DNA from: an uncultured Ruminococcus sp.
GTDB lineage: Bacteria > Bacillota > Clostridia > Oscillospirales > Acutalibacteraceae
Assembly: GCA_902776185.1 (NCBI GenBank)
Contig: CACYPH010000016.1
Coordinates: forward strand, 1 to 39,865
DNA: 39,865 bases
Direction of reading: 5' to 3'
Position numbers and translations under genes: made by a program. Positions 2 through 17,184 of this stretch are shown piece after piece. Position 1 is the stretch's first letter. Every line of letters starts with the position of its first letter. The notes beneath the pieces were generated by a model. It made no database searches and was not told the DNA's origin. It saw only the letters and a list, made by a program, of their open reading frames with translations.

Positions 2-310
2 CTCGGCTTCAACATCGAGGCGACCGATCTGACTGCGAAGGTCATGCGCGAGCACGGCATCAAGACGAGAACGCTCAAGAAGATCTCTGAGGGCTCTACT
101 CAGATCCTCGACGCGATCCGTGCGGGCTATGTCAGCTACGTTATCAACACGCGTGCGATCATGTCGGGCGTTCACTACGAGGACGGCACGGCGATCCGTC
201 AGACCGCTGTTGAAAACGGCGTAACGATCTTTACCTCGCTGGATACCGTCAGAGTATTGCTCGACGTACTCGAGGAAACGACATTAACGATTTCTACGAT
301 TGATGCTTGA
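2..310 (+). CDS. carB: Carbamoyl-phosphate synthase large subunit, C-terminal fragment
   Basis: Partial gene: the reading frame is open from the window edge and codes for about 102 residues before TGA. It matches the end of the large subunit of carbamoyl-phosphate synthase, the MGS-like allosteric domain that follows the two ATP-grasp synthetase halves. Visible features are the SEGSTQILDAIRAGYVSYVINT stretch (residues about 30-51 of the fragment) and a closing segment of the kind FTSLDTVRVLLDVL. The enzyme makes carbamoyl phosphate from glutamine, bicarbonate and ATP. Lying upstream of pyrK, pyrD and pyrB, it is most likely the pyrimidine-operon copy. The catalytic part is outside the window, so the call rests on the C-terminal domain and context. 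Confidence 0.88.
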   Translation, partial: LGFNIEATDLTAKVMREHGIKTRTLKKISEGSTQILDAIRAGYVSYVINTRAIMSGVHYEDGTAIRQTAVENGVTIFTSLDTVRVLLDVLEETTLTISTIDA

Positions 311-383: not shown

Positions 384-1118
384 ATGAAGGATACTGTATT
401 TAAGATTATTGAGAACAACAGAATAGCGAAGAATGTATATCGGATGTGTCTTGAGGGTGATGTTTCCGCCATCAGGAATCCCGGGGAATTCATCAACATC
501 CGGCTCGAGGGATTCTACCTGCGCCGCCCGATCTCCGTTTATGATGTGAGCGATACGACGGTTACGATCATTTACAAGGTCGTCGGCAAGGGCACAGAGG
601 CGATGAGCCGCATGACGGTCGGCGAAGAATTGCAGATCCTGACGGGACTGGGCAACGGCTACGACCTGAGCCTGTCGGGCGATAAGCCGCTTTTGATCGG
701 CGGCGGCGTCGGCGTTCCTCCGATGTATCTGCTCGCAAAACGTCTGCTCGCACAGGGCAAGGTTGTCCGGGTGATCCTCGGCTTCAATACCGAGGACGAG
801 GTTTTCGGCGAGGAGGAATTCAAGGCGATCGGATGCAGCGTAACCGTGACGACCGTCGACGGCTCGCGCGGGGTGAAAGGCTTTGTCACCGACGCGCTGC
901 CCGAAAACTACACCTACTTCTATACCTGCGGACCTGAGCCGATGCTCAAGGCGGTCTACAACGCGACCGATACCTCGGGTCAGTTCAGCTTTGAGGAGCG
1001 AATGGGATGCGGCTTCGGCGCCTGCATGGGCTGCAGCTGCAAGACGATCACCGGCTACAAGCGGATCTGCAAGGACGGTCCGGTGCTGAAAAAGGAGGAG
1101 ATCTTATGGGAGAAATGA
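384..1118 (+). CDS. pyrK: Dihydroorotate dehydrogenase electron transfer subunit
   Basis: Codes for 244 residues. PyrK carries FAD and a [2Fe-2S] cluster and passes electrons from the class 1B dihydroorotate dehydrogenase PyrD to NAD+. The N-terminal FAD-binding barrel shows the LRRPISVYDV motif, the middle shows the nucleotide-binding GGGVGVPPMYLLAKRL, and the C-terminal cluster ligands appear as C209-x4-C214-x2-C217-x11-C229. The ATG at 384 is chosen because homologous sequence begins there. A TTG at 354 would translate the upstream repeat element (GGTPAPDRN) and is rejected. No good ribosome binding site precedes 384. The end overlaps pyrD by 13 bases, which suits translational coupling of two subunits of one enzyme. 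Confidence 0.95.
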   Translation: MKDTVFKIIENNRIAKNVYRMCLEGDVSAIRNPGEFINIRLEGFYLRRPISVYDVSDTTVTIIYKVVGKGTEAMSRMTVGEELQILTGLGNGYDLSLSGDKPLLIGGGVGVPPMYLLAKRLLAQGKVVRVILGFNTEDEVFGEEEFKAIGCSVTVTTVDGSRGVKGFVTDALPENYTYFYTCGPEPMLKAVYNATDTSGQFSFEERMGCGFGACMGCSCKTITGYKRICKDGPVLKKEEILWEK

Positions 1119-2023
1119 AAGTCAATCTCTGCGGGATCACCCTTGATAACCCCGTGATCCCCGCCTCCGGCACGTTCGGCTACGGCTACGAATTCGCCGA
1201 GCTGTACGATATCAACATTCTCGGCACGTTTTCCTTTAAAGGGACGACAAAGGATGCACGCTTCGGCAATCCTACCCCGCGCATCGCGGAATGCACGGCT
1301 GGTATGATCAACGCCGTCGGACTGCAGAATCCCGGCGTCGACAAGGTTATCGGCGAGGAATTGCCTAAATTGAAGAAATGCTTTCACAAGCCTGTGATGG
1401 CAAATGTCAGCGGCTTTGCCGTCGAGGATTACGCCTACACCTGTGGAAAGCTCGATAAAGAAGAACAGGTCGGGTGGCTGGAGGTCAACGTCAGCTGTCC
1501 GAATGTTCACGGCGGCGGAATGAGCTTCGGAACGAATCCCGACGCCGCCGCAGAGGTCACAAGGGCGGTCAAGGCGGTGACGACAAAACCGGTCATCGTC
1601 AAATTAAGCCCGAACGTTACGGATATCGTCAGCATCGCGAAAGCCTGTGAGGACGCGGGCGCGGACGGCATCAGCCTGATCAACACGATGCTGGGGATGC
1701 GGATCGAGCTGAAAACCCGCAAGCCGATCATTGCGAACACGATGGGCGGATTCTCCGGACCGGCGATCTTCCCGGTCGCGCTGAGGATGGTCTATCAGGT
1801 GGCGCACGCGGTGAAGATCCCCGTTGTCGGGATGGGCGGCGTGAGTACCGCTGAGGACGTGATCGAAATGATGCTCGCCGGCGCAACGGCTGTTGAGGTC
1901 GGCGCGGCGAATCTCGTGAATCCGTACGCGAGCAAGGAGATCGTCGAAAATCTGCCGGCGGTCATGGAACAATACGGAATCAAGAATTTGAGCGAAATTA
2001 TCGGAGGGGTGAAGAATGGGTAA
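1106..2023 (+). CDS. pyrD: Dihydroorotate dehydrogenase, class 1B catalytic subunit
   Basis: Codes for 305 residues, the usual length for class 1B. It oxidises dihydroorotate to orotate using FMN in a TIM barrel. The active-site motif [11 protein letters not shown] places the catalytic cysteine at residue 131, as expected for class 1 enzymes; class 2 has serine. The FMN-binding segments GMGGV and [13 protein letters not shown] are present near the C-terminus. The start at 1106 has an AAAGGAGGAG site eight bases upstream and lies inside the end of pyrK. An upstream in-frame ATG at 1007 would add 33 residues that are out-of-frame pyrK sequence. The adjoining pyrK makes the NAD+-linked heterotetramer the natural prediction. 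Confidence 0.96.
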
Positions 2024-2723
2024 GGATGTTATCGTAGCCTGCGATTTTTCGAGCGCAGCGGCTACCTTTGAATTCCTCGACAAGTTCAAGAACGAGGACA
2101 GAAAACCGTTTGTCAAGATCGGCATGGAGCTTTACTATGCCGAGGGACCGTCGATCGTGCGGGAAATCAAGAACAGAGGGCATCAGATCTTTCTGGATCT
2201 GAAGCTGCACGATATCCCGAATACCGTCAAAAAGGCGATGGCTGTCCTGTCGAACCTCGATGTGGACATCACCAATCTGCACGCGGGCGGCACCAAGGCG
2301 ATGATGAAAGCAGCTTTGGAGGGCCTGACCAGAGCTGACGGCACGCGTCCCCTGCTGATCGCGGTGACGCAGCTGACGTCGACCGATCAACAGGCGATGG
2401 AAAACGATCTGCTGATCAAAGAACCGATCGACGAGGTCGTGATGCACTACGCAAAATGCGCTGAGGAAAGCGGGCTGGACGGCGTCGTCTGCTCGCCGCT
2501 GGAAGCCGGCAAGGTGCATGATACCTGCGGCAAGGACTTTTTGACGATCACGCCCGGCGTTCGCTTTGCGGACGGCGAGGTCGGCGATCAAAAGCGCGTG
2601 ATGACCCCCGCCGCGGCAAAGGAGATCGGCTCGGACTACATCGTCGTCGGACGCCCGATCACCCAGGCGGACGATCCGGTCGCGGCTTACAGAAGATGCG
2701 TTGCTGAGTTTGTAGATTAAGGA
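2016..2723 (+). CDS. pyrF: Orotidine 5'-phosphate decarboxylase
   Basis: A protein of about 234 residues catalysing the last step to UMP, decarboxylation of OMP. The signature [11 protein letters not shown] lies at residues 61-71, giving the catalytic Asp61-Lys63-Asp66 set of this cofactor-free TIM-barrel enzyme. The phosphate-binding [15 protein letters not shown] motif is near the C-terminus. The start codon overlaps the pyrD stop (ATGGGTAA), and GGAGGGG lies just upstream, so the start is well supported. Length and motif spacing fit the short bacterial form (B. subtilis type). pyrE follows after a short gap. Confidence 0.96.
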
Positions 2724-2732
2724 GAGAAAAAT

Positions 2733-3377
2733 ATGGATCTGAATGTGAAAATCGCGAAGGATTTATTGAAGATAAAGGCGGTGTTTTTCCGCCCCGAAGA
2801 GCCCTTTACATGGGCGAGCGGGATCAAAAGTCCCGTTTACTGCGACAACCGTCTGACGCTCAGCGACCCTGAGGTGCGCATGGACGTCGAGAGCGGTCTC
2901 GCAGAATTGATCAAGGAAAACTATCCCGAGGTCGAGGTGCTGATGGGTACCTCCACCGCCGGTATCGCCCACGCGGCGATCACCGCTCACCTGATGGGTC
3001 TGCCAATGGGCTATGTCCGCTCCGGTCACAAGGATCACGGCAGACAGAACCAGATCGAGGGCAGACTTGAAAAGGGTCAGAAGGTCGTCGTGGTCGAGGA
3101 TCTGATCTCGACCGGCGGCTCGGTACTCGAGGTCGTCGACGTCCTCAGAGAAGCGGGCGCAGAGGTGCTGGGCATCGTGTCGATCTTCACCTACGGAATG
3201 CAGAAGGGTCTCGATCGACTTGCTGCTGCGGATGTGAAGAATATCAGCCTGACGAACTTTGACGTCATCGCCGAGGTCGCCGCCGAGGACGGCTATATCA
3301 AGAAAGAGGATGTAGAGCGGCTCATTCAGTTCCGCAACAATCCCTCTGACGAAAGCTGGATCGGAGGCAAGGCATGA
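2733..3377 (+). CDS. pyrE: Orotate phosphoribosyltransferase
   Basis: Codes for 214 residues. It joins orotate to PRPP to give OMP, the substrate of PyrF encoded just upstream. The PRPP-binding motif [13 protein letters not shown] is at residues 118-130. The flexible catalytic loop, [17 protein letters not shown], is at about 94-110 with Lys100 and His102. GGAGAGAAAAAT precedes the ATG. The stop overlaps the start of pyrB (ATGA), so the two are probably translationally coupled. Confidence 0.96.
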
Positions 3378-4297
3378 GATCGGTCATCGACGTACTCGAC
3401 CTGAGTACAACGGAGCTCGATGAGCTGATCGGCGTTGCGAACGATATCATCGATCACCCCGAAAACTATCGGGAAGTTTGTAAATATAAGAAGCTCGCGA
3501 CGCTGTTCTTTGAGCCGTCCACCAGAACGAGGATGAGCTTTGAGGCGGCGATGTACGAGCTGGGCGGACAGGTCATCTCGATGAGCTCGGCGGGCGCATC
3601 GTCCGCGGCTAAGGGCGAATCGGTCGCCGATACCGCCAAGACGGTCTCGTGCTATGCGGACATCATTGCGATGCGACACCCGAAAGAGGGCGCGGCTTTA
3701 GTTGCAGCCCGTGCGGCAAAGATCCCGGTCATCAACGCGGGCGACGGCGGTCACTGTCACCCGACCCAGACGCTGGCGGATCTTTTGACCATCTATCGTG
3801 AGAAAGGAAGTTTCAGCAACCTGACCATCGGTCTCTGCGGCGACTTAAAATTCGGCAGGACCGTGCATTCGCTGATCAACGCGATGTCGCGGTACGATAA
3901 TAACAAATTTGTACTTATTTCTCCTGAGGAATTAAAAGTTCCGAGCTACGTCAAGCGCGACGTGCTCAAAGCGAAGCGCATCCCCTATATCCAGACGACC
4001 GATCTGCTCGGCGCGATGCCCGATCTCGATATCCTCTATATGACGCGCGTGCAGAGGGAGCGGTTCTTTAACGAAGAGGATTACCTGCGGCTCAAGGACA
4101 GCTACATCCTCACCCCCGAAAAGCTGAAAAACGCGAAATCGGATCTGAGCATCATGCATCCGCTGCCGAGAGTCAACGAGATCTCTGTCGCGATCGACGA
4201 CGATCCGAGGGCGTGCTATTTCAAGCAGGTCTTAAACGGTAAATATATGCGCATGGCGCTGATCTTGAAGCTGTTGAAGGAGGCGGACAGACTGTGA
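3374..4297 (+). CDS. pyrB: Aspartate carbamoyltransferase catalytic subunit
   Basis: Codes for 307 residues, typical of ATCase catalytic chains. It condenses carbamoyl phosphate with aspartate, the committed step of pyrimidine synthesis. The carbamoyl-phosphate motif [12 protein letters not shown] has STRTR at residues 49-53. HPTQ at 129-132 and HPLPR at 262-266 are the other phosphate- and substrate-binding motifs. The gene overlaps pyrE at its start by four bases and pyrI at its end by four. The presence of pyrI means the holoenzyme is probably the regulated catalytic/regulatory complex known from E. coli, rather than the free trimer of B. subtilis. Confidence 0.97.
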
Positions 4298-4719
4298 ATA
4301 TCGATTCCATCCAGAACGGCATCGTGATCGACCATATCACCGCCGGCAAGGGCATGAAGCTCTATGAGCTGTTGAACCTTGACGAGCTGGACTGCTCGGT
4401 CGCGATCATCAAGAACGTCACCAGTAAGAAGATGGGGAAGAAGGATATCATCAAGGTGGACGCCGATATCCCGGTGAACATCGACGTCATCGGCTATATC
4501 GACCCCGGCGCGACCGTCAACATCATCAAAAACGGTATCCGCGCCGAGAAGATGAATATCCAGATGCCCGCGATACTGACGAACGTCATCAAATGCAAAA
4601 ATCCCCGTTGTATCACGACGACGGAACAGGAGCTCGACCATGTGTTCAAGCTCGCCGATAAAGAGAACAAGGTGTACCGCTGTGTATACTGTGAAACTAA
4701 GGAAGAGAGGGTTATATAA
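4294..4719 (+). CDS. pyrI: Aspartate carbamoyltransferase regulatory subunit
   Basis: Codes for 141 residues starting at GTG 4294, which overlaps the pyrB stop; AAGGAGG lies nine bases upstream. PyrI binds nucleotide effectors in its N-terminal domain and holds the catalytic chains through a C-terminal zinc domain. The four zinc cysteines are visible as C101-x4-C106 and C130-x2-C133. Expected behaviour by family is feedback control by CTP/UTP and ATP; this is known for the E. coli protein and inferred here. The stop codon is followed immediately by the guaB ATG. Confidence 0.95.
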
Positions 4720-6225
4720 ATGGCAACCTTTATTAATGAACCTGCCCATACTTTTAACGAATATCTGCTGATCCCGGGATACTCCTCGAGCGAGTGTATC
4801 CCCGCGAATGTGACGCTGAAAACACCCCTTGTCAAGTACAAAAAGGGCGAAGATCCGGCGATCACCATGAATATCCCGCTGGTGTCTGCAATCATGCAGG
4901 CGGTGTCCGGCGACAAGCTGGCAGTCGCACTGGCGACACAGGGCGGCGTGAGCTTCATCTACGGCTCACAGAGCGTTGAGGACGAGGCGGCGATGGTAAA
5001 GCGTGCCAAGAGCTATAAGGCGGGCTTTGTCAAGAGCGACAGCAATATCCGTCCCGATGCAACTCTGGCAGACGTCATGGAGATTACCGCACGTACCGGC
5101 CACTCGACCTTAGCGGTCACCGAGGACGGCTCGTCCGAGGGCAAGCTGCTGGGCGTTGTCACCAGCCGTGACTATCGTATCAGCCGTATGGACAGAAGCG
5201 AAAAGGTCGAGACCTTTATGACGCCCTTTGAAAAGCTGATCTACGCTTACGAGGGGATCACCCTCAGTGAAGCGAACGATATCATCTGGGACCACAAGCT
5301 CAATTCCCTGCCGATCATCACCAAGGACGGCAAGTTCTGCTACTTTGTATTCCGCAAGGACTACGAAGCGCATAAGGCGAATCCGAACGAGCTGCTCGAC
5401 GCACACAAGAGATATGTTGTCGGCGCAGGTATCAACACCCGCGACTATGCCGAGCGTGTGCCCGCGCTGATCGAGGCGGGAGCGGATGTGCTGTGCATCG
5501 ACTCATCCGAGGGCTTCTCCGAGTGGCAGAAGCTGACCATCGACTGGATCCGCGAGCATTACGGCGACAGCGTCAAGGTCGGCGCGGGCAACGTCGTCGA
5601 CGCAGAGGGCTTCCGATTCCTCGCCGAGAGCGGCGCTGACTTTATCAAGGTCGGTATCGGCGGCGGTTCGATCTGCATCACCCGCGAGACCAAGGGTATC
5701 GGACGCGGTCAGGCGACTGCGCTGATCGAGGTCTGTGCGGAGAGAGATAAGTATTTTGAGGAAACAGGCGTATATATCCCCGTCTGCTCCGACGGCGGCA
5801 TCGTTTACGACCACCATATCACGCTCGCGCTGGCGATGGGCGCAGACTTCATCATGCTGGGCAGATACTTCGCCCGCTTCGATGAAAGCCCGTCCAACAA
5901 GGTTTCGATCAACGGTACTTACTATAAGGAGTACTGGGGCGAGGGCTCACAGAGAGCGCGCAACTGGCAGCGCTATGACCTCGGCGGCGATAAGAAGCTG
6001 AGCTTTGAAGAGGGCGTTGATTCACTCGTACCGTATGCGGGTCCGTTGAAGGACAACGTTGCGCTGTCGCTGTCAAAGGTCAAGTCGACCATGTGCAACT
6101 GCGGCGCGCTGACCATCCGTGAATTACAGCAGAAGGCGAAGCTGACGCTGGTATCCGCGACCTCGATCGTAGAGGGCGGCGCACACGACGTTATCCAGAA
6201 GGATAAAAGCTCGGCGATGAAGTGA
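4720..6225 (+). CDS. guaB: Inosine-5'-monophosphate dehydrogenase (T. foetus-type)
   Basis: Codes for 501 residues. It oxidises IMP to XMP with NAD+, the first step towards GMP. The barrel is interrupted by a CBS-domain pair (about residues 105-220). The active-site loop reads [17 protein letters not shown] with catalytic Cys319, in place of the common bacterial GPGSICTTR. The flap carries Arg418-Tyr419 in NWQRYDLGG. From memory, these positions and most of the surrounding sequence match the Tritrichomonas foetus enzyme, so this belongs to that clade. It starts directly after the pyrI stop with GGAAGAGAGG upstream, so it appears to be the last gene of the pyrimidine operon. A heptamer repeat element follows the stop. 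Confidence 0.94.
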
Positions 6226-6336: not shown

Positions 6337-6825
6337 ATGAAAAAAATAGCGATCATTATGGGGTCGGACAGCGATCTGCCGATCGCCAAAAAGGCGGCAG
6401 ATATGCTGAAGACCCTTGATATTCCGTTCGAAGCGCACGTTTACTCGGCGCACAGAACACCGTTCGAAGCGCGGGACTTTGCGCTGAATGCGCGCGGGCG
6501 CGGCTTCGGCGCGATCATCGCCTTTGCCGGCATGGCGGCGCATCTGGCAGGCGCTCTGGCGGCGAACACCACGATCCCGGTCATCGGCGTACCGTGTAAG
6601 GGCGGCGCTCAGGACGGCATGGACGCACTGCTCGCGACCGTGCAGATGCCGACGGGCATCCCGGTGGCAACGGTTGCTCTGAACGGCGGCGCAAATGCGG
6701 CGCTGCTCGCGGCGCAGATCATCGCCGTTGAAGATAAGGCGCTTGCCGAGAAGCTCGACAATAAGCGCAAGTCCGACGCCGCGGCGGTATTGGAGAAAGA
6801 TAAAGGGATTATGGAAAGGCTGTAA
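6337..6825 (+). CDS. purE: 5-(carboxyamino)imidazole ribonucleotide mutase
   Basis: Codes for 162 residues, the usual size for class I PurE. The enzyme moves the carboxylate of N5-CAIR to C4 of the imidazole ring to give CAIR. The N-terminal GSDSDLP motif and YSAHRTP carry the substrate-binding and catalytic histidine regions. AGMAAHLAG and [24 protein letters not shown] resemble class I enzymes more than the class II AIR carboxylases. The start is set by GGAGG seven bases upstream; the longer frame from 6280 would translate the repeat region. purK, the usual partner making N5-CAIR, is not in the window, so the class I assignment is by sequence only. Confidence 0.92.
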
Positions 6826-6940: not shown

Positions 6941-6958
6941 AATGGAGGTATATGAACT

Positions 6959-8383
6959 ATGGGAGGTTTTTTCGGGATAGCATCGCATGAGGACTGCATG
7001 ATGGATGTATTCTTCGGCGTTGACTATCATTCACACCTCGGTACACGCCGCGGAGGTATGGCGGCGTATGACAAAGAAATCGGACTGCAGCGCAAGATCC
7101 ATAACATTGAGAATGCGCCGTTCCGTACCAAATTTGAGCGTATTTTTGATGAGATGAGCGGTACGTCTGTCATCGGCGTGATCTCTGACAGCGATCCCCA
7201 GCCGATGCTGATCCGCTCGCATCTCGGTACCTATGCGATCTGCAACGTCGGTATCATCAACAACGCCGACGAGCTGATCGAAACATATTTTCAGTCTTCC
7301 GGCGGTCACTTTGACGCGATGACCGGCGGCAGGATCAATTCCACCGAGCTGCTCGCGGCGCTGATCGACCAGAAGGGCGATTTTGTCGAGGGCATCAAGT
7401 TCGCGCAGGACGTCATCGACGGCACTGCCTCGGTGCTGATCTTAAAGGACGACGGTTCGATCGTCGCCGCCCGCGACAAGGTCGGCAGACTGCCGGTCGT
7501 CATCGGTAAGGGCGAGAGCGGCTTTGCCGTATCGTTCGAGAATTTTGCGTATCAGAAGCTCGGTTATGAGGACTACAAGGAATTAGGGCCCGGCGAGATC
7601 GTCGAGCTGACGCCCGACGGCTGTACCACCATGCGCGAGCCGCTGAAGAAAAAGCGGATCTGCTCCTTCCTTTGGAGCTACTACGGCTATCCGACCTCTA
7701 CCTATGAGGGCGTGAATGTTGAGGCGATGCGCTATATCAACGGACGCATCATGGCGGATAACGATAAGGAGAATCTCGGCGACCTCGATATCGACTATGT
7801 CGGCGGTGTGCCGGATTCGGGTACGCCCCATGCAATCGGTTATGCGAACCAGAGCCATAAGCCCTTTGCGCGCGCATTTATCAAATATACGCCGACCTGG
7901 TCGCGCTCGTTCATGCCCGCGCGTCAGACCGACCGCAACAAGATCGCGAAGATGAAGCAGATCCCGGTTTACGATCTGATCAAGGACAAGAATCTGCTGT
8001 TCGTGGACGACAGCATCGTCCGCGGCACACAGCTCAGAGAAACCGTCGAGTTCCTCTATGAGAACGGTGCAAAGAGCGTGCATATGCGCTCTGCCTGCCC
8101 GCCGATCATGTTCGGCTGTAAGTTCCTCAACTTCTCGCGCTCGACCTCCGATATGGAGCTGATCGCGCGCAGGGTCATCATGGAGCTCGAGGGCGAAGAG
8201 GGCTTTAATCATATCAAAGAATATTCCGACGGCTCGACCGAGCGCGGCAAGAACCTGAGAAAGACCATCTGCGAAAAGCTGAAATTCGCTTCATTGGATT
8301 TCCAGTCGCTCGACGGCATCATCGAGGCGATCGGCATGGATAAAAACGACCTTTGTACCTATTGCTGGGACGGAGAGGAATAA
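6959..8383 (+). CDS. purF: Amidophosphoribosyltransferase (PurF) lacking the glutaminase site
   Basis: Codes for 474 residues. PurF makes phosphoribosylamine from PRPP, the committed step of purine synthesis. The PRPP motif LLFVDDSIVRGTQ (346-358) is intact, and cysteines matching the [4Fe-4S] ligands of the B. subtilis enzyme are visible at C235, C387, C466 and C469. The N-terminal Ntn glutaminase domain is present by length but its active site is gone: the protein starts MGGFFG where active enzymes have a nucleophile cysteine (CGxxG), the GHVRYAT motif is GVISDSDPQP, the oxyanion HNG is NVG, and SSDTE is INSTE. I infer use of free ammonia or of another glutaminase. GGAGG lies 10 bases upstream. 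An overlapping ATG at 6952 opens only 12 codons. Confidence 0.88.
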   Translation: MGGFFGIASHEDCMMDVFFGVDYHSHLGTRRGGMAAYDKEIGLQRKIHNIENAPFRTKFERIFDEMSGTSVIGVISDSDPQPMLIRSHLGTYAICNVGIINNADELIETYFQSSGGHFDAMTGGRINSTELLAALIDQKGDFVEGIKFAQDVIDGTASVLILKDDGSIVAARDKVGRLPVVIGKGESGFAVSFENFAYQKLGYEDYKELGPGEIVELTPDGCTTMREPLKKKRICSFLWSYYGYPTSTYEGVNVEAMRYINGRIMADNDKENLGDLDIDYVGGVPDSGTPHAIGYANQSHKPFARAFIKYTPTWSRSFMPARQTDRNKIAKMKQIPVYDLIKDKNLLFVDDSIVRGTQLRETVEFLYENGAKSVHMRSACPPIMFGCKFLNFSRSTSDMELIARRVIMELEGEEGFNHIKEYSDGSTERGKNLRKTICEKLKFASLDFQSLDGIIEAIGMDKNDLCTYCWDGEE

Positions 8384-8512
8384 CGCTTGCGTTTTTTCTC
8401 CGCCTATTGAAAAGCCTTTGCTTTTCTGGGCGTCATCAACGGCGGGTCAATCGTTACTCAGCACGACTATTTCATATGAATGCTCTTTGAAATGAGCAGA
8501 AAGGCAGATAAT
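8384..8512. other. purF-purM spacer with two small hairpins
   Basis: This 129-base spacer breaks the otherwise tight gene packing. AACG-CTTG-CGTT at 8382-8393 is followed by more T residues and could act as a weak terminator. GAAAAGC-CTTT-GCTTTTC at 8409-8426 is a clean 7-bp stem. No heptamer repeat and no clear promoter is seen. The purM binding site is a weak AGAAAGG. Confidence 0.45.
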
Positions 8513-9556
8513 ATGATACAGAATTCTAAATCGGACGCTTACGCCGCGGCGGGCGTGGATATCACCGCCGGCTACAAGGCGGTCGAGCTGATGAAACAGC
8601 ACGTGGCACGTACTGCGACAAAGGGCGTATGCTCGGACGTCGGCGGCTTCGGCGGACTGTTTGAGCTGGACCTCGAGGGGATCTCCAAGCCTGTGCTGGT
8701 CAGCGGTACCGACGGCGTCGGTACAAAGCTGAAGCTGGCGTTTCTCATGGACAAACACGATACCGTAGGCATCGACTGTGTCGCGATGTGCGTGAACGAC
8801 ATCGTCTGCGTCGGTGCAAAGCCGCTGGTATTCCTCGACTACATCGCCTGCGGCAAGAATGTTCCCGAACGGATCGCGGATATCGTCAAAGGCGTTGCAG
8901 AGGGCTGTGTGCAGGCAGGCGCCGCATTGATCGGCGGCGAGACCGCCGAGATGCCCGGCTTCTATCCCGCGGATGAATACGACCTCGCGGGCTACAGCAC
9001 CGGCGTGGTCGACAAGGCGAAGATCATCGACAATACCAAGATGGCTGAGGGCGACGTTGTGATCGCCCTGCCCTCGAGCGGCGTTCACTCCAACGGCTTC
9101 TCGCTGGTCAGAAAGGTGTTCGACGTTGAGAACGCCGATATCAAAGAGCCGATCGAGGCTTTGGGCGGCAAGTCGGTCGGCGAGACCCTGCTCACTCCGA
9201 CAAAGATCTATGTCAAGCCGGTACTCGCGCTTTTGGAAGAAGTCACCGTCAAGGGCATCTCGCATATCACCGGCGGCGGCTTTTATGAGAATATCCCGCG
9301 CTCGATTCCGGATGGACTGTGTGCGAAGATCAAAAAGGACGACGTTCGCGTCTTGCCGATCTTCAAACTCATTCAGGAGAAGGGCGGCATCAGCGAGCAT
9401 GATATGTTCAACACCTTCAACATGGGCGTCGGCATGAGCATCGTTGTTCCCGCAGATCAGGCAGAGAAAGCGCTCACGATCCTTAAGGAAAACGGCGAGG
9501 ATGCTTATGTCATCGGCGAGATCGTCGCGGCAGAGGAGAAAATTCAGTTATGCTAA
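8513..9556 (+). CDS. purM: Phosphoribosylformylglycinamidine cyclo-ligase
   Basis: Codes for 347 residues, the family length. PurM closes the imidazole ring: FGAM plus ATP gives AIR. The N-terminal [18 protein letters not shown] and the nucleotide-binding [11 protein letters not shown] (residues 141-151) are characteristic, as is [15 protein letters not shown]. The ATG at 8513 is preferred because the sequence before it ([11 protein letters not shown] from 8480) is not part of the family and AGAAAGG lies at a suitable distance. The end overlaps purN by seven bases (ATGCTAA). Confidence 0.95.
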
Positions 9557-10170
9557 AGGAAAAAGCGCGCATCGCGGTGCTGGTCTCCGGCGGCGGTACG
9601 AATCTGCAGGCGATACTGGACGCACAGCAAAGCGGCGTCATCCACAGCGGCGAGGTCGTCTTGGTCATCTCCAACAACAAGGACGCTTACGCACTGACCC
9701 GTGCGGCAAAAGCCGGTATCAAAGGATTATATATTTCTAAAAAAGAATTAAAATCTCAAGCGGCATTTGAGGCCGCCGTGGTGAACGCGATGGAGGAATA
9801 CGAGATCGATCTGATCGTTCTTGCGGGCTTTATGTCGATCTTGTCCGAGGGGTTCACCTCAAAGTATCCAAAGCGCATCATCAATGTGCATCCCGCGCTG
9901 ATCCCGTCTTTCTGCGGCAAGGGCTATTATGGTCTGAAAGTGCATGAGGCGGCGCTCGAAAAGGGCGTGAAGGTGACCGGTGCGACGGTTCATTTCGTCA
10001 ACGAGATCCCCGACGGGGGAGAGATCATCGCCCAAAAAGCGGTGGAGGTCATGGACGGCGACACGCCCGAAGTGCTCCAGCGCAGGGTGATGGAGCAGGC
10101 GGAATGGATCATTCTTCCTCAATCTGTTGAAAAGGTTTCAGCAGAGTTAGGAGTTAGGAGTCAGGAGTGA
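9550..10170 (+). CDS. purN: Phosphoribosylglycinamide formyltransferase
   Basis: Codes for 206 residues. It transfers the formyl group of 10-formyl-tetrahydrofolate to GAR. The [10 protein letters not shown] loop (13-22) binds the phosphate; the catalytic set appears as Asn112-x-His114 in [10 protein letters not shown] and Asp155 in EIPDGGEII. The start overlaps the purM stop. The last eight residues (ELGVRSQE) and the stop are written by heptamer repeat element 4, so the native C-terminus has been replaced or extended. Because it lies past the catalytic core, function is probably kept. Confidence 0.94.
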
Positions 10171-10197: not shown

Positions 10198-10251
10198 GTG
10201 TCTTATCTCAATGAATCGCGATTATATCATTGTAAATAAAGGGGAATGTAT

Positions 10252-10971
10252 ATGAACATCTACAAAATCAACGACATCGCCGAGCTGATCGAGGGCAATT
10301 CCTACGTCGGCAGAGGCATCGTCATCGGCAAGACTGCCGACGGCACAAAGGCGGCGACCGCGTACTTTATCATGGGCAGAAGCGCGAACAGCCGCAATCG
10401 CATCTTCACCGAGCGCGACGGCGCGGTCTACACCGAGCCTTTTGACGCTTCCAAGGTCGAGGATCCGAGCCTGATCATCTACGCGGCGATCCGCGAGTAT
10501 GAGAACAACCTGATCGTGACCAACGGCGATCAGACCGACACCATCTATGACGGCATGGAAAGCGGTATCGGCTTCCACAAGGCTCTCGCGACCCGCGAGT
10601 TCGAGCCTGACGCGCCGAACCTCACGCCCCGCATCAGCGGTATGCTGACCTTTGACGAGGGCGACTTCACCTACAGCATGAGCATCTTAAAATCCATCGA
10701 CGCAGAGGGCTCTGCTTGTGCACGCTACGGCTTTGACTATCCGTCAAAGGCGGGGCTGGGTCACTTTATCCACACCTACGTTTGCGACGGCAATCCGATC
10801 CCGACCTTCCAGGGCGAGCCGGAGAGAGTTTCGATCGACAACGATATCGACGCTTTCACCGACAAGCTGTGGAACGCGCTGGATGCAGATAACAAGATCT
10901 CGCTGTATGTCCGCTATATTGACCTCAAAACCGGCGAGGTCGAGAATCGCTTGATCAATAAGAATCAATAA
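10252..10971 (+). CDS. purO: IMP cyclohydrolase, PurO-type
   Basis: Codes for 239 residues. It resembles the archaeal-type IMP cyclohydrolase family (PurO), which closes FAICAR to IMP and is unrelated to the MGS-like cyclohydrolase domain of bacterial PurH. Family-like features are the N-terminal YVGRGIVIGKTADGTKAATAY and MGRSANSRNRIF, and the internal ITNGDQTD-type segment (VTNGDQTDTIYDGM). Context is strong: the next gene is an AICAR transformylase with no cyclohydrolase domain. The ATG at 10252 is preferred over 10246 because AAAGGGG is then about seven bases away. The family call is from motif memory plus context. Confidence 0.85.
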   Translation: MNIYKINDIAELIEGNSYVGRGIVIGKTADGTKAATAYFIMGRSANSRNRIFTERDGAVYTEPFDASKVEDPSLIIYAAIREYENNLIVTNGDQTDTIYDGMESGIGFHKALATREFEPDAPNLTPRISGMLTFDEGDFTYSMSILKSIDAEGSACARYGFDYPSKAGLGHFIHTYVCDGNPIPTFQGEPERVSIDNDIDAFTDKLWNALDADNKISLYVRYIDLKTGEVENRLINKNQ

Positions 10972-10989
10972 GATAAGGGGAATATCATC

Positions 10990-12174
10990 ATGAAAGAATT
11001 TGAACTGAAATACGGTTGTAATCCGAACCAGAAACCCGCGAAGATCTTTATGCACGACGGCTCCGATCTGCCCATCCAGATCCTCTGCGGCAGACCCGGC
11101 TACATCAACTTCCTCGACGCATTCAACTCATGGCAGCTCGTCAAGGAACTCAAAGAGGCGCTCGGCTTACCGGCGGTGACCTCGTTCAAACACGTCAGCC
11201 CCACCTCGGCGGCGGTCGGCATCCCGCTTTCCGACAAGCTCAAGAAAGCCTGCTTTGTCGACGATATCGAGGGTCTCGACGACAGCCCGCTTGCGTGCGC
11301 TTATGCGCGTGCCCGCGGCACTGACAGAATGTGCTCGTTCGGCGACTGGGTCGCCCTGTCCGACGTCTGTGACGTTACCACCGCGAAGATGATCCAGCGC
11401 GAAGTTTCCGACGGCATCATCGCGCCGGGTTATGAGCCCGAAGCGCTGGAGATCCTGAAAAGTAAGCGCAAGGGCAACTATAACATCGTACAGATCGACC
11501 CTGATTATGTTCCCGATCCCGTGGAGCACAAGCAGGTCTACGGCATCACCTTTGAGCAGGGCCGCAATAACTTTGAGATCAACCGTGAGCTGCTGAGCAA
11601 CCTTGTGACCAAGAACAAGGAGCTGCCCGACAGCGCGGCGCGCGATCTGATCGTTGCGCTGATCACCCTGAAATATACCCAGTCCAACTCCGTTTGCTAT
11701 GCCGTTGACGGTCAGGCGATCGGCGTCGGCGCGGGTCAGCAGAGCCGTATCCACTGCACTCGTCTTGCGGGTACTAAGGCGGATACATGGTTCCTCAGAC
11801 AGGCGGACAAGGTACTGAACCTGCCGTTCCGTGACGATATCCGCCGTCCCGACCGCGACAATGTCATCGACGGCTACATCAACCAGAACGAAGAGGACGT
11901 GACCGCTGACGGCGTATGGCAGCGATACTTTACCGAGCAGCCCGCTCCGTTCACCGCAGAGGAACAGCGCGCTTATCTCGACACCTGTGAGAACGTCGCC
12001 CTCGGTTCAGACGCGTTCTTCCCGTTCTTCGACAACATCGAGCGCGCCTACAGAAGTGGCGTCAAATATATCGCCGAGCCCGGCGGTTCGATCCGCGACG
12101 ATCTGGTCATCGAGTGCGCCGACAAGCACGACATGGTCATGGCGTTCACCGGCATGAGATTGTTCCATCATTAA
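10990..12174 (+). CDS. purH: AICAR formyltransferase, stand-alone (PurH transformylase domain only)
   Basis: Codes for 394 residues. It formylates AICAR to FAICAR using 10-formyl-tetrahydrofolate. The sequence is the transformylase domain of PurH: LKYGCNPNQKPAKI at the start, the catalytic Lys-His pair in TSFKHVSPTSAAVG, NSVCYAVDGQAIGVGAGQQSR, and SDAFFPFFDNIERA near the end. The usual N-terminal MGS-like cyclohydrolase domain (about 200 residues) is absent, and this is not a truncation because the gene has its own AAGGGG site and start. The PurO-type gene upstream should take the FAICAR to IMP. Confidence 0.93.
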   Translation: MKEFELKYGCNPNQKPAKIFMHDGSDLPIQILCGRPGYINFLDAFNSWQLVKELKEALGLPAVTSFKHVSPTSAAVGIPLSDKLKKACFVDDIEGLDDSPLACAYARARGTDRMCSFGDWVALSDVCDVTTAKMIQREVSDGIIAPGYEPEALEILKSKRKGNYNIVQIDPDYVPDPVEHKQVYGITFEQGRNNFEINRELLSNLVTKNKELPDSAARDLIVALITLKYTQSNSVCYAVDGQAIGVGAGQQSRIHCTRLAGTKADTWFLRQADKVLNLPFRDDIRRPDRDNVIDGYINQNEEDVTADGVWQRYFTEQPAPFTAEEQRAYLDTCENVALGSDAFFPFFDNIERAYRSGVKYIAEPGGSIRDDLVIECADKHDMVMAFTGMRLFHH

Positions 12175-12235: not shown

Positions 12236-13498
12236 ATGGTTGTAATGGTTATTGGCGGCGGCGGACGCGAGCACGCCATCATTAAGAAGTTAAAAGAGAA
12301 TCAGGATATCGAGAAGATCTACGCCCTGCCCGGCAACGGAGGGATCGCCGCCGATGCCGAATGTGTGGCGGTCGGCGCGACGGATCTCGACGGCATCGTG
12401 AAATTTGCGGTCGACAATGCGATCGACTATGCGGTGGTCGCACCCGACGATCCGCTGGTCATGGGATGCGTCGACAGGCTCGAGGAAAAGGGGATCCCCT
12501 GCTTCGGTCCGCGCGCGAATGCCGCGATCATCGAGGGCAGCAAGGTCTTTTCAAAGAACCTGATGAAAAAATACGGCATCCCGACTGCGGCTTACGAGGT
12601 GTTTGACGACGCTGAGAAAGCGCTCGCGTACCTCGATACTGCGCCGATCCCGACCGTCATCAAGGCGGACGGTCTGGCGCTGGGCAAGGGCGTCATCATC
12701 GCCGACACCCGCGAGAAAGCGAAGGCGGCGGTCATCTCGATCATGCAGGACAAGCAGTTCGGCAAGAGCGGCGATCAGATCGTCATCGAGGAATTCCTCG
12801 AGGGTCCCGAGGTATCGGTGCTGAGCTTTACCGACGGCGAGGTCGTCGTGCCGATGATCTCTTCGATGGATCATAAGCGTGCGGGCGACGGCGATACCGG
12901 ACTGAATACCGGCGGCATGGGTACGGTCGCGCCGAATCCCTACTACACCGCGGCGGTCGCCGAGGAATGCATGAACAATATTTTCCTGCCGACCATCAAG
13001 GCGATGAAAGCGGAGGGCAGACCGTTCAAGGGTTGTCTGTACTTCGGTCTGATGATCACCAAAGACGGCGTGAAGGTTATCGAATATAACTGCCGCTTCG
13101 GCGATCCGGAGACACAGGTCGTCCTGCCGCTGTTGAAATCCGATCTGTTCACGATCATGCGCGCGGTCACTGACGGCAGGCTCAGCGAAACGCCGGTTGA
13201 ATTCGAGGATAAAAACGCCGCGTGCGTCATCATGGCGAGCGAGGGCTATCCCGTAAAATATGAGAAGGGCTACGAGATCACCATTCCCGCCGAAATCAGC
13301 GACAAGGTCTTTGTCGCGGGCGCGGCTCTCAAGGACGGCAAGCTGGTCACTTCCGGCGGCAGAGTGCTGGGCGTGACGGCGATCGCGGACAGTCTGAAAG
13401 ATGCGATCGATGCGTCCTATGAGATGGTGAACGAGATTCATTTTGACAACGCCTACTGGCGTCATGATATCGGAAAAAGAGCGATGGAGGCTGAGTAA
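12236..13498 (+). CDS. purD: Phosphoribosylamine-glycine ligase
   Basis: Codes for 420 residues, typical of GAR synthetase. It joins phosphoribosylamine, the PurF product, to glycine with ATP. The N-terminal GGGGREHA motif is at residues 7-14. The ATP-grasp core includes SKVFSKNLMKKYGIPTAAYEV, PTVIKADGLALGKGV, and NTGGMGTVAPNPYYT; the metal-binding YNCRFGDPETQ is clear. TAGGAGATCA precedes the ATG. The stop overlaps the purL start as TAATG. Confidence 0.96.
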   Translation: MVVMVIGGGGREHAIIKKLKENQDIEKIYALPGNGGIAADAECVAVGATDLDGIVKFAVDNAIDYAVVAPDDPLVMGCVDRLEEKGIPCFGPRANAAIIEGSKVFSKNLMKKYGIPTAAYEVFDDAEKALAYLDTAPIPTVIKADGLALGKGVIIADTREKAKAAVISIMQDKQFGKSGDQIVIEEFLEGPEVSVLSFTDGEVVVPMISSMDHKRAGDGDTGLNTGGMGTVAPNPYYTAAVAEECMNNIFLPTIKAMKAEGRPFKGCLYFGLMITKDGVKVIEYNCRFGDPETQVVLPLLKSDLFTIMRAVTDGRLSETPVEFEDKNAACVIMASEGYPVKYEKGYEITIPAEISDKVFVAGAALKDGKLVTSGGRVLGVTAIADSLKDAIDASYEMVNEIHFDNAYWRHDIGKRAMEAE

Positions 13499-16400
13499 TG
13501 GTATACAGGATTTTTGTGGAAAAGCGCGAGGGCTTACAGAATGAGGCAAAGGCGCTGCTTTCCGATATCAACAATCTGCTGTCGATCACATCCTTGAAGG
13601 ATGTGCGCATTTTCAACCGCTATGATGCGGAGAATATCGACAAAGAACTCTTTGATTACGCAGTCGGCGCGGTGTTCAGCGAACCGCAATTAGACATCGC
13701 ATCGACAGAGATCGATACAGGGGACGCGCGCGTCTTTGCGGTGGAATATCTGCCCGGTCAGTTTGACCAGCGTGCGGATTCCGCGGCACAGTGTATCCAG
13801 ATCATCTCTCAGGGCGAGCGCCCGACCGTGCGTTCGGCAAAGGTTTACGCCCTGTACGGCGACCTTTCCGACAGTGAGATCGAAGAGATCAAGAAATATG
13901 TCATCAACCCGGTCGAGGCGCGCGAGGCTTCACTTGAGCTGCCCGCGACGCTCAAGACCGATTATGAGATTCCCACGACCGTTCGCACCCTCGACGGCTT
14001 TAACGAGCTGGACGAAAACGGGCTGAAAGCCTTTGTGGACGAGATGGGACTGGCGATGGACTTGGACGATATCAAGTTCTGTCAGAAATATTTTATCAGC
14101 GAGCATCGTGACCCGACCATCACCGAGATCCGCATGATCGACACCTACTGGTCGGATCACTGTCGTCACACGACATTCCTGACGATCATTGACAATGCAA
14201 AGTTTGAGGATGAACTGCTCCAGAAAGCGTATGACGAATATATCGCCGTTCGCGAAGAGCTTGGTCGGACAAAACCGATCTGCCTGATGGATCTCGCAAC
14301 GGTCGCGGTGAAATATCTGCGCACACACGGCAAGCTCGACAAGCTCGACGAGAGCGAGGAGATCAACGCCTGCACCGTGAAGATGGACGTCGATGTTGAC
14401 GGCGTGACTGAACCGTGGCTGCTGCTGTTTAAAAATGAGACCCATAACCATCCGACGGAGATCGAGCCGTTCGGCGGCGCGGCGACCTGCATCGGCGGCG
14501 CGATCCGCGATCCGCTGTCGGGACGCTCGTATGTTTACGGTGCGATGCGCGTGACCGGTGCGGCTGATCCGACCGTCCCTGTCAGTGAGACCATCGAGGG
14601 CAAGCTCCCCCAGCGCAAGATCGTCACCACCGCCGCGGCGGGCTACAGCTCCTACGGCAACCAGATCGGTCTGGCGACGGGCATCGTCGATGAGATCTAT
14701 CATCCCGGCTATGCCGCAAAGCGCATGGAGATCGGCGCGGTCATCGCCGCTGCTCCCGCGGAGAATGTACGCCGCGAAGTTCCCGCTCCCGGAGATGTGG
14801 TCATCCTCTTGGGCGGTGCGACGGGTCGCGACGGTATCGGCGGCGCGACGGGTTCGTCCAAGGCGCACAACGCGCACTCGGTCGAGACCTGCGGCGCAGA
14901 GGTGCAGAAGGGTAACGCGCCCGAGGAACGCAAGCTGCAGAGATTATTCCGCAGAAAAGACGCTTGTCAGATGATCAAGCGCTGTAACGACTTCGGCGCG
15001 GGCGGCGTATCGGTCGCGATCGGCGAGCTGGCGGACGGTCTGGATATTGATCTGAATGCAGTTCCCAAGAAATACGAGGGTCTGGACGGCACAGAGCTCG
15101 CAATCTCCGAATCGCAGGAGCGCATGGCGGTCGTCGTTGAGCCCGAGAATGTTGACGCGTTCCTTGCACTCGCAAAAGAGGAGAACCTCAACGCCTGTGC
15201 GGTCGCGGTCGTGAAGGCTGATCCCAGACTGACCATGACATGGAACGGTGCAAAGATCGTGGATATCAGCCGCGAGTTCCTCAATACCAACGGTGCGGAA
15301 AAGCATATCGACATCACTCCCGCCGCTCCCGAAAATTATGAAAAAACGGTCGAAGGCGGTTTTGCCGAGAATATGAAGGCGATCGCGTCCGACCTGAATA
15401 TCTGCTCGAAGCGCGGATTGTCAGAGCGTTTTGACTCCACCATCGGCGCGGGTACGGTGCTGATGCCGTTCGGCGGCAAGAATCAGCTCACCCCGATCCA
15501 GGCGATGGTGCAGAAGGTAAGTGTCGAGAAGAAGCACACCGACACCGTGTCGCTGATGGCATGGGGCTACAATCCGCTGATCGCGGAGAAAAGCCCGTAT
15601 CACGGTGCCTATCTGGCGGTCATCGAATCTGTCAGCAAGCTGATCGCATCGGGCGCATCCTTCGAGGATGTTTACCTGACGTTCCAGGAGTATTTCGAGA
15701 AGCCCGGTTCGGACGGCAAGCGCTGGGGCAAGCCTCTGGCGGCATTACTCGGCGCGTTCAAGGCGCAGATGAACCTCGGCATCGGCTCGATCGGCGGAAA
15801 GGACAGCATGAGCGGCAGCTTTGAGAAGCTCGACGTTCCGCCGACATTGGTGTCCTTTGCGGTCACCACCGACAAGGTGCAGAACGTGATCTCGCCCGAA
15901 TTCAAGGCGGCGGGTCACAAGGTCGTGATGCTCGCGCCCGATTATGACGGCGACAAGCTTCCCGATACGCAGTCGCTCTTAAACATATATAATAAGGTGA
16001 CAGCATTGATGCGCGAGGGCAAGGTTTACGCCGCATATACGCCGACCATCGGCGGTATTGCCGAGGCGATCATGAAGATGGCGTTCGGCAACGGCTTTGG
16101 ATTTGCTTTCGACGATATTGCGCTCGATGCGCTGTTCGGCTACAACTACGGCGCATTTCTCCTCGAGACAGCTGCAGAGATCGACGGTGCGGTAGTTATC
16201 GGCACAGTGACCGACGACGGTGCATTTACCTACGGCGGCGAGAGGGTTGCAGTCAGCGAGATCCTCGGCGAGTATGAGGACAAGCTCGAGGGCGTTTATG
16301 CCTGCAACATTCCCGATACGCATGCTCCTGTCGAGAATTTCAATTACAGCGCAACATCTTATCCGTCACCCGCTATCAAAGCGGCGCGACCCAAGGTGCT

Positions 16401-17184
16401 GATTCCTGCGTTCCCGGGTACGAACTGCGAGTATGATTCTGCGAAGGCGGTCGCCGATGCAGGCGCACAGCCCGAGATCATCGTCATCAACAATCTGAGC
16501 GCAAGCGGCATTCAGCAGAGCGTCGAACAGTTTGCACGCGAGCTGAAAACCGCCCAGATGGTGTTCATCCCCGGCGGCTTCTCCGGCGGCGATGAGCCTG
16601 ACGGTTCGGGCAAATTCATCACCGCCTTCTTCCGCAACGCCGCGATCAAAGAGGGCGTCGCTGATCTGCTCGACAATCGCGACGGTCTGATGTGCGGTAT
16701 CTGCAACGGCTTCCAGGCGCTGATCAAACTGGGTCTGGTGCCCTACGGCAAGATCATCGATACCGATGAGAACTGCCCGACCCTGACCTACAATACGATC
16801 GCGCGTCACCAGAGCCGCATCGTCCGCACACGCATCGCCAGTAACAAGAGCCCGTGGCTGAGCCTGACCAATGTCGGCGACGTCTACAGCGTGCCGATCT
16901 CCCACGGCGAAGGACGATTCTTCGCTTCTGAGGAACTGATCCGGGAATTAGCCGCGCGCGGCCAGATCGCGACGCAGTACGTCGATCTCGACGGCAACGC
17001 GACAACCGACGTCCATTTCAACCCGAACAACTCCTGCTATGCGATCGAGGGCATCACCTCGCCCGACGGCAGAGTTTTCGGCAAGATGGGACACTCTGAG
17101 CGTGTCGGCGCTGGGCTGTACAAGAATGTGCCGGGCAATTACGACATCCGGATGTTCGAGGCGGCAGTCAAGTACTTTCAATAA
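13498..17184 (+). CDS. purL: Phosphoribosylformylglycinamidine synthase with fused glutaminase
   Basis: Codes for 1228 residues, a single-chain FGAM synthase. It turns FGAR, ATP and glutamine into FGAM. Order: PurS-like N-terminal part (about 1-150), linker, two PurM-like synthase halves (IDTYWSDHCRHTTF near 215, NETHNHPTEIEPFGGAAT near 313, GIGGATGSSKAHN near 448), and a class I glutaminase from about residue 965. The glutaminase triad is intact: Cys1069 in GICNGFQ, His1199 and Glu1201 in GHSERVG. This length resembles the form found in Clostridia, streptococci and Bacteroides rather than the split PurS/PurQ/PurL of Bacillus. It is the last gene of the purine operon. Confidence 0.96.
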   Translation: MVYRIFVEKREGLQNEAKALLSDINNLLSITSLKDVRIFNRYDAENIDKELFDYAVGAVFSEPQLDIASTEIDTGDARVFAVEYLPGQFDQRADSAAQCIQIISQGERPTVRSAKVYALYGDLSDSEIEEIKKYVINPVEAREASLELPATLKTDYEIPTTVRTLDGFNELDENGLKAFVDEMGLAMDLDDIKFCQKYFISEHRDPTITEIRMIDTYWSDHCRHTTFLTIIDNAKFEDELLQKAYDEYIAVREELGRTKPICLMDLATVAVKYLRTHGKLDKLDESEEINACTVKMDVDVDGVTEPWLLLFKNETHNHPTEIEPFGGAATCIGGAIRDPLSGRSYVYGAMRVTGAADPTVPVSETIEGKLPQRKIVTTAAAGYSSYGNQIGLATGIVDEIYHPGYAAKRMEIGAVIAAAPAENVRREVPAPGDVVILLGGATGRDGIGGATGSSKAHNAHSVETCGAEVQKGNAPEERKLQRLFRRKDACQMIKRCNDFGAGGVSVAIGELADGLDIDLNAVPKKYEGLDGTELAISESQERMAVVVEPENVDAFLALAKEENLNACAVAVVKADPRLTMTWNGAKIVDISREFLNTNGAEKHIDITPAAPENYEKTVEGGFAENMKAIASDLNICSKRGLSERFDSTIGAGTVLMPFGGKNQLTPIQAMVQKVSVEKKHTDTVSLMAWGYNPLIAEKSPYHGAYLAVIESVSKLIASGASFEDVYLTFQEYFEKPGSDGKRWGKPLAALLGAFKAQMNLGIGSIGGKDSMSGSFEKLDVPPTLVSFAVTTDKVQNVISPEFKAAGHKVVMLAPDYDGDKLPDTQSLLNIYNKVTALMREGKVYAAYTPTIGGIAEAIMKMAFGNGFGFAFDDIALDALFGYNYGAFLLETAAEIDGAVVIGTVTDDGAFTYGGERVAVSEILGEYEDKLEGVYACNIPDTHAPVENFNYSATSYPSPAIKAARPKVLIPAFPGTNCEYDSAKAVADAGAQPEIIVINNLSASGIQQSVEQFARELKTAQMVFIPGGFSGGDEPDGSGKFITAFFRNAAIKEGVADLLDNRDGLMCGICNGFQALIKLGLVPYGKIIDTDENCPTLTYNTIARHQSRIVRTRIASNKSPWLSLTNVGDVYSVPISHGEGRFFASEELIRELAARGQIATQYVDLDGNATTDVHFNPNNSCYAIEGITSPDGRVFGKMGHSERVGAGLYKNVPGNYDIRMFEAAVKYFQ

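What the first reader, a model, noticed from the sequence alone, without database searches (positions are those of the whole stretch)
6959..8383. PurF with an intact PRPP site but a dismantled glutaminase site
The first residues are MGGFFG, so the Ntn nucleophile cysteine (the C of CGxxG in active PurF) is glycine. The other glutaminase positions also differ: the Arg-containing GHVRYAT is replaced, the oxyanion Asn of HNG is Val, and the Asp of SSDTE is lost. Yet the PRPP loop and the four presumed [4Fe-4S] cysteines are conserved, and the gene sits in a full purine operon. This is not decay; it suggests an ammonia-fed enzyme or one fed by a partner glutaminase. I recall similar MGGFFG proteins in other gut anaerobes, so it may be an unstudied subgroup.
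Basis: partly seen in the sequence, partly recalled or inferred. Interest (0 to 1): 0.72.

Follow-up and report, generated by a model that had tools for sequence, protein, structure and literature searches.

The report
Ammonia-fed first enzyme of purine synthesis
Many anaerobic bacteria carry a version of the first purine-making enzyme that has lost the part that takes nitrogen from glutamine, in some of them as the only version found, so they probably build purines from free ammonia.

The parts
6959..8383 (+). Glutaminase-dead PurF (GGFFG type), 474 aa
   Evidence: TIGR01134 158.6 bits, cut-off 350; best PDB sequence match 1ao0; model pTM 0.83; Foldseek and VIA-align best matches are PurF
6944..6955 (+). 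GGAGGT ribosome-binding-like site and in-frame TGA stop just upstream of the ATG: no hidden N-terminal Cys
   Evidence: read from the sequence
6959..6976 (+). MGGFFG start in place of Cys-Gly-x-x-Gly
   Evidence: 0 of 42 representatives has Cys1
7025..7042 (+). YHSHLG motif replacing LQHRG (Arg26 to Leu27)
7883..7912 (+). KYTPTWSRSF: family-specific flexible loop, in most Cys1-type PurFs KNxYxGRTF
   Evidence: alignment
8006..8029 (+). PRPP loop DDSIVRGT, intact
   Evidence: 42 of 42 representatives
7661..7663 (+). Cys235, presumed Fe-S ligand
   Evidence: 75 of 75 representatives
8117..8119 (+). Cys387, presumed Fe-S ligand
   Evidence: 75 of 75 representatives
8354..8365 (+). Cys466-x-x-Cys469, presumed Fe-S ligands
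   Evidence: 75 of 75 representatives
2..310 (+). C-terminal end of carB (MGS-like domain), cut by the contig start
   Evidence: PF02142; 94% to CarB of G012
384..1118 (+). pyrK-like, dihydroorotate dehydrogenase electron-transfer subunit (best models below their cut-offs)
1109..2023 (+). pyrD
2016..2720 (+). pyrF
2733..3377 (+). pyrE
3374..4297 (+). pyrB
4294..4719 (+). pyrI
4720..6225 (+). guaB-type IMP dehydrogenase (PRK07107)
6337..6825 (+). purE
8504..9556 (+). purM
9550..10170 (+). purN
10246..10971 (+). PurO-like IMP cyclohydrolase (below the family cut-offs)
10990..12174 (+). stand-alone AICAR formyltransferase (PRK07106)
12236..13498 (+). purD, the user of phosphoribosylamine
13498..17184 (+). 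purL with fused class I glutaminase domain
   Evidence: TIGR01857; PurQ-type model TIGR01737 matches residues 968-1224 (below its own cut-off)

Best explanation
It is an ammonia-dependent phosphoribosylamine synthase: PRPP + NH3 gives phosphoribosylamine + PPi in the C-terminal PRPP site, with free ammonia in place of the ammonia that canonical PurF makes from glutamine. The N-terminal domain keeps the glutaminase fold but no catalysis. It probably serves as scaffold and as one wall of the ammonia path, which fits its remodelled flexible loop. In GGFFG-only lineages it is the entry enzyme of purine synthesis. In genomes that also hold canonical PurF, the two are likely an ammonia isozyme and a glutamine isozyme. 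Shown here: the intact PRPP site, the dismantled glutaminase site, long conservation, the operon position, and its standing as the only PurF found in many near-complete genomes with purD. Inferred: the reaction, the nitrogen source and the division of labour.
For: Glutaminase residues lost and PRPP loop kept in 42 of 42 representatives. N-domain constraint retained. In the loci L007-L086, purM follows GGFFG in 76 of 80 and purE precedes it in 72 of 80 (three of the four without purM end within 300 bases of the gene); in L088 and L115-L118 Cys1-type PurF holds the same slot. GGFFG stands in tandem with intact PurF in L104 and L125-L133. Of 157 other genomes of the order, 34 have GGFFG only, 53 GGFFG and a second hit, 63 canonical only, 7 none (counted). 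0 of 42 (those 34, G016 and the 7) has a PurF over the cut-off. purD is in 34 of 35 GGFFG-only and 3 of 7 PurF-less genomes. 11 of 35 show no other class II amidotransferase with the purF model. carB without carA lies in the GGFFG operon of several genomes. No CarA hit in 18 of 34 GGFFG-only and 7 of 116 canonical-bearing genomes, Fisher p 6e-9, relatedness not corrected. In G012, G017 and G035 the canonical PurF sits in a GSIII - Amt::PII - purF - carA - carB cluster. Precedent: E. coli Cys1 mutants still use ammonia (PMC3261824 section 6, read, citing Mei and Zalkin).
Against: No activity was measured here or found in print. 16 of 34 GGFFG-only genomes have CarA (15 over the cut-off, and in G052 a 273-bit hit beside its carB), so loss of the two glutaminases is not strictly coupled. 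PurL of the same operon has a glutaminase domain, so glutamine is probably still spent at step 4. Stand-alone copies occur beside canonical PurF, and in Bacteroidota and Peptoclostridium they lie next to pepT, which could mean another role there. G055 has GGFFG without purD, CarA or CarB. 3 of 7 PurF-less genomes have purD too. In G023, a close relative, purF-carA-carB lies apart from Amt and GSIII. The window's own genome is 86% complete and breaks at carB copies, so it is not shown to be GGFFG-only.
Confidence: 0.76

Rival explanations
1. The PRPP site is fed by a separate glutaminase, which binds the pseudo-glutaminase domain and delivers ammonia in a complex.
For: The N-domain is strongly conserved without catalysis, as expected of a docking surface. 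The own genome has a class II amidotransferase ORF of 384 aa that could act in trans (L005; its likeness to a glutamate-synthase amidotransferase subunit is my reading by eye). In tandem loci an intact PurF is co-encoded.
Against: No glutaminase among the neighbours scanned. In 11 of 35 GGFFG-only genomes no other class II amidotransferase was found with the purF model (class I glutaminases were not surveyed). GGFFG-only lineages lack the tandem PurF.
Confidence: 0.1
2. It is a regulatory or hetero-oligomeric partner of canonical PurF rather than an enzyme in its own right.
For: Tandem genes in ten loci from three family groups; PurF enzymes are tetramers (recalled).
Against: 34 near-complete genomes, and G016, show no canonical PurF over the cut-off while purD is kept in 34 of these 35. 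The PRPP loop is invariant in 42 of 42 representatives.
Confidence: 0.06
3. It uses another amine or serves another pathway, for example one linked to peptide or glycine breakdown (pepT and gcvT neighbours).
For: Stand-alone copies beside pepT in Peptoclostridium and two annotated Bacteroidota records, with gcvT in the latter.
Against: The window clade lies in the purine operon, and purD is retained even in GGFFG-only genomes with stand-alone copies, for example G311, G314, G331, G337 and G403.
Confidence: 0.06
4. Cryptic glutaminase: another nucleophile, such as Cys13, restores glutamine use.
For: Cys13 is common near the N-terminus.
Against: Cys13 is Ala or Val in L044, L057, L060, L066, L072, L081 and L084. 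The glutamine-binding loop itself is deleted.
Confidence: 0.02

Closest known systems
Canonical glutamine PRPP amidotransferase PurF (TIGR01134; B. subtilis 1ao0/1gph, E. coli 1ecc)
   Different: No Cys1, Arg26, Arg73 loop, Asn101 or Asp127; no propeptide; changed flexible loop; 158.6 bits against a cut-off of 350
Crenarchaeal PurF' paralogues (Brown et al. 2011, PMC3261824, section 6 read)
   Same: PurF-like, no N-terminal Cys, near purF and other purine genes; its authors suggest an ammonia-dependent aminotransferase
   Different: There each genome also has canonical PurF; only loss of the Cys is described; here the whole glutamine site is gone and the protein can be the only PurF found. Sequence kinship could not be tested.
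Ammonia-using carbamoyl phosphate synthetase CPS I (passages of PMC6022934)
   Same: An ammonia-only form of a glutamine-dependent enzyme type; loss of the catalytic Cys in a kept glutaminase domain is recalled
   Different: A different enzyme, with an activator (N-acetylglutamate) for which no counterpart is known here
E. coli PurF Cys1 mutants (Mei and Zalkin 1989, as cited in PMC3261824)
   Same: Ammonia can serve as nitrogen source without glutaminase
   Different: Laboratory mutants of one residue; here a natural and widespread clade

Membership tests
PurF equivalog TIGR01134 | Score over the curated cut-off (350 bits) | tested here: not met
   158.6 bits
PurF equivalog TIGR01134 | N-terminal Cys nucleophile and glutamine-binding residues Arg73, Asn101, Asp127 | tested here: not met
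   0 of 42 representatives has Cys1; loop deleted and Asn101 replaced in 42 of 42
PurF equivalog TIGR01134 | Type I PRTase PRPP loop DDSIVRGT | tested here: met
   42 of 42
PurF equivalog TIGR01134 | PurF two-domain fold | tested here: met
   predicted model against PDB
PurF equivalog TIGR01134 | Fe-S ligand cysteines of the B. subtilis type | tested here: met
   four columns 75 of 75; which cysteines are ligands is recalled; presence of the cluster not testable
PurF equivalog TIGR01134 | Makes phosphoribosylamine from PRPP and glutamine | not testable with these tools
   needs an enzyme assay
Crenarchaeal PurF' | PurF-like protein lacking Cys1, near purine genes | tested here: met
Crenarchaeal PurF' | Coexists with canonical PurF in every genome | tested here: not met
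   34 of 157 genomes, and G016, have GGFFG without a PurF over the cut-off
Crenarchaeal PurF' | Same sequence clade | not tested
   no crenarchaeal PurF' sequence was in hand
GATase_7 (PF13537) | Score over Pfam's gathering score | tested here: met
   30 against 25 bits, residues 74-192

The most novel reading that the evidence does not exclude
The joined pyr-pur operon is a glutamine-free entry module for nucleotides: a CarB without CarA makes carbamoyl phosphate, and a glutaminase-dead PurF makes phosphoribosylamine, both from free ammonia. In some close relatives a second, glutamine-fed set (canonical PurF, CarA, CarB) sits beside type III glutamine synthetase and an Amt-PII fusion, as if used when ammonium is scarce. 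Several lineages have dropped the glutamine set and live on the ammonia set alone.
Probability: 0.48. Interest if true: 0.8.

Novelty: new variant of a known kind. Interest (0 to 1): 0.66.

Why it matters
PurF is the committed step of purine synthesis and a textbook glutamine amidotransferase. Where sources name these proteins, they mostly call them amidophosphoribosyltransferase. If they are ammonia-only, metabolic models of many rumen and gut bacteria assign the wrong nitrogen source, and glutamine-analogue inhibitors should not act on this step. The clade would show how an amidotransferase gives up its glutaminase yet keeps the domain, at natural scale. The linked absence of CarA makes a testable case that ammonium-rich habitats select for ammonia-fed nucleotide entry. 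It also makes the 2011 proposal of an ammonia-dependent PurF testable in bacteria.

Tried and rejected
Decay or start-site error was rejected by the in-frame upstream stop and the conservation. A repositioned Cys13 nucleophile was rejected, as it is not conserved. I looked for a partner glutaminase beside stand-alone and operon copies: the genes scanned were purC, dihydroorotase, an FNT transporter, LigT, SfsA, a sensor kinase, SLH and GHMP-kinase proteins, and one ORF without a hit. The pepT and gcvT link of Bacteroidota and Peptoclostridium was sought by blastp in the Clostridia loci held then (L001, L007-L119) and gave no hit; L125-L163 gave none either. Division of labour with a PRPP-dead canonical partner was rejected: the ten tandem partners have both sites intact. 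I first took the window's genome as GGFFG-only. One search seemed to support this (no purF-carA-carB after Amt-PII on C36), but withdrew it: a carB copy nearest the CarA-paired type (C61) is cut where carA and purF would be expected. My first count of CarA-less genomes (19 of 34) was lowered to 18 after re-reading: G052 has a below-cut-off CarA hit beside its carB.

Papers: searches showed no report of this clade in their listings. Section 6 of PMC3261824 was read in full and passages of it; passages only of PMC7056826, PMC7953260, PMC6022934 and PMC13260591; the rest only as listings. Roles of Arg26, Asn101 and Asp127, the identity of the Fe-S ligands, use of ammonia by CarB alone, and the catalytic Cys loss in CPS I are recalled.

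Full report
OBSERVATION. The gene at 6959-8383 translates to 474 aa beginning MGGFFG. A TGA lies in frame at 6953-6955 and a GGAGGT nine bases before the ATG, so no propeptide or hidden Cys is possible. It scores 158.6 bits against TIGR01134 (cut-off 350), and its best PDB sequence match is B. subtilis PurF 1ao0. It was aligned with E. coli PurF (L120), the 1ao0 fragment and nine clostridial Cys1-type PurFs. 0 of 42 GGFFG representatives (under 83% identical) has Cys1. All 42 have Leu for Arg26, a deletion over Arg73-Ala77, and Val, Ile or Thr for Asn101. Asp127 is lost as well, though that stretch aligns uncertainly and 3 of the 11 Cys1-type rows have His there. Gly27 (42 of 42), Gly102 (41 of 42) and DDSIVRGT (42 of 42) are kept. 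The four presumed Fe-S cysteines are in 75 of 75 representatives, with an extra Cys380 in 74. The flexible loop, which closes over PRPP and is needed for the ammonia channel (passages of PMC7056826), reads KYTPTWxRSF in this clade and KNxYxGRTF in most Cys1-type PurFs.

FAMILY. The tree of 53 GGFFG and 26 Cys1-type rows has GGFFG as one side of a branch with SH-aLRT 100 (quick method, long stem, root not inferred). Members occur in Bacteroidota and Peptoclostridium and, by source names, in Pelotomaculum and Desulfoscipio. Of 241 database proteins, the window's included, 0 carry CGxxG in the first 40 residues and 240 carry DDSIVRGT. Among the 80 loci L007-L086, purM follows GGFFG in 76 and purE precedes it in 72; of the four without purM, three end within 300 bases of the gene and L030 shows no pur gene. 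The same slot holds Cys1-type PurF in L088, L115, L116, L117 and L118. L104 has canonical then GGFFG; L125-L133 have GGFFG then canonical. These ten partners are intact at every glutaminase and PRPP position shown. The ten loci lie in family groups f14, f19 and f133; nine of them were picked because both hits lay close, so the share among the 53 two-gene genomes is at least 10. Stand-alone copies also exist. On a 55-row tree operon versus stand-alone needs 5 changes, and presence of a canonical copy (51 labelled rows, the window's own label unproven) needs 12, of which starred branches force 8.

ONLY PurF IN MANY GENOMES. The A1 profile was run over 158 genomes of the order: the window's own and 157 others, all at 95% completeness or more. 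Counted, of the 157: GGFFG only 34; GGFFG plus a second hit 53; canonical only 63; none 7. For part of the 53 the second hit was not printed and is read from the match count. Over the 34, G016 and the 7, TIGR01134 found 0 of 42 over its cut-off. purD is present in 34 of these 35 GGFFG-only genomes (33 of the 34, and G016) and in 3 of the 7 (Fisher p 0.0015). The exception G055 also lacks CarA and CarB. In a wider draw from the whole phylum (249 genomes, 95% complete or more) 242 have a PurF over the cut-off, so lack of canonical PurF is rare outside this order.

A SECOND SIGN OF AMMONIA USE. The window begins inside the C-terminus of carB and continues pyrK-like, pyrD, pyrF, pyrE, pyrB, pyrI, guaB and the pur genes. 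carB and the pyr and pur genes with GGFFG stand together, with no carA among them, in L183, L185, L186, L188, L191 and L193, and carB-guaB-purE-GGFFG in L187; L194 shows carB to purE, with GGFFG just beyond the stretch taken. In L195-L197 the carB operon is on another contig than GGFFG. The gene before carB is a dihydroorotase in 7 of 7 loci scanned (L185-L188, L191, L194, L195), and in the own genome on contig C66. CarA over its cut-off is in 15 of 34 GGFFG-only, 51 of 53 two-gene, 58 of 63 canonical-only and 1 of 7 PurF-less genomes. One GGFFG-only genome, G052, has a 273-bit hit beside its carB, most likely a divergent CarA, so 18 of 34 show no CarA, against 7 of 116 canonical-bearing genomes (Fisher p 6e-9 without correction for relatedness). 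CarB is found in 16 of these 18; G055 and G347 lack it. The CarA-less operon CarBs (12 rows, one from PurF-less G443 and one from G017, which also has CarAB) form one side of a branch. In G012, and by homology in G017 and G035, canonical PurF stands in a cluster of type III glutamine synthetase, an Amt-PII fusion, purF, carA and carB; in G023 purF-carA-carB has other neighbours. This suggests a glutamine set for scarce ammonium and an ammonia set in the pyr-pur operon. It is an inference; no expression data were seen. Against strict coupling, 16 of 34 GGFFG-only genomes have CarA, and PurL carries its own glutaminase domain.

THE WINDOW'S OWN GENOME. It is 86% complete and shows no canonical PurF. 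Yet 14 of the 17 relatives whose GGFFG scores over 900 bits have a further PurF hit. The own genome has a second carB (C61), nearest by path to the CarA-paired type and cut at the contig start where carA and purF would be expected. I therefore do not claim that this organism depends on the GGFFG enzyme alone; G016 and the 34 genomes above carry that argument.

PRECEDENT. Brown and colleagues (PMC3261824, section 6) described crenarchaeal PurF' without Cys1 and suggested an ammonia-dependent aminotransferase. They also report that E. coli PurF without Cys1 can still use ammonia. The present clade differs: the whole glutamine site is gone, and it can be the only PurF found. Ten paper searches listed no report of it in the held library, which lacks most subscription journals.

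VERDICT. An ammonia-dependent PurF is the best explanation (0.76): a new variant of a known kind, and a good candidate for direct biochemistry.

Noticed in passing
L088, L115, L118, L157 (other genomes): A second Cys1-bearing PurF type in the pur operon has His or Asn where Asp127 is expected; three of the four also have odd PRPP loops (DDSIIKGE, DDSIIHGN, DDSIVRGN).
   Followed up: no
L026:12467-13069: A formate/nitrite transporter gene lies inside the pur operon between purM and purN; other loci show a similar gap there.
   Followed up: partly
window 10246-12174: PurH is replaced by a PurO-like cyclohydrolase below its cut-offs and a stand-alone AICAR formyltransferase.
   Followed up: no
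L121, L122, L123: Stand-alone GGFFG genes of Peptoclostridium and Bacteroidota lie next to pepT, in the two Bacteroidota records also gcvT; the link is unexplained.
   Followed up: partly
window 2-310 and G000:C2 end (L205:9324-9629): The last 102 aa of carB are identical on two contig ends, so the assembly breaks at carB copies.
   Followed up: yes
L166:8061-18197: Cluster of type III glutamine synthetase, ammonium transporter fused to P-II, canonical purF, carA and carB.
   Followed up: yes
G443 (L198): A near-complete genome of the same genus without PurF over the cut-off and without purD keeps the pyr operon with a carB of the CarA-less type.
   Followed up: no
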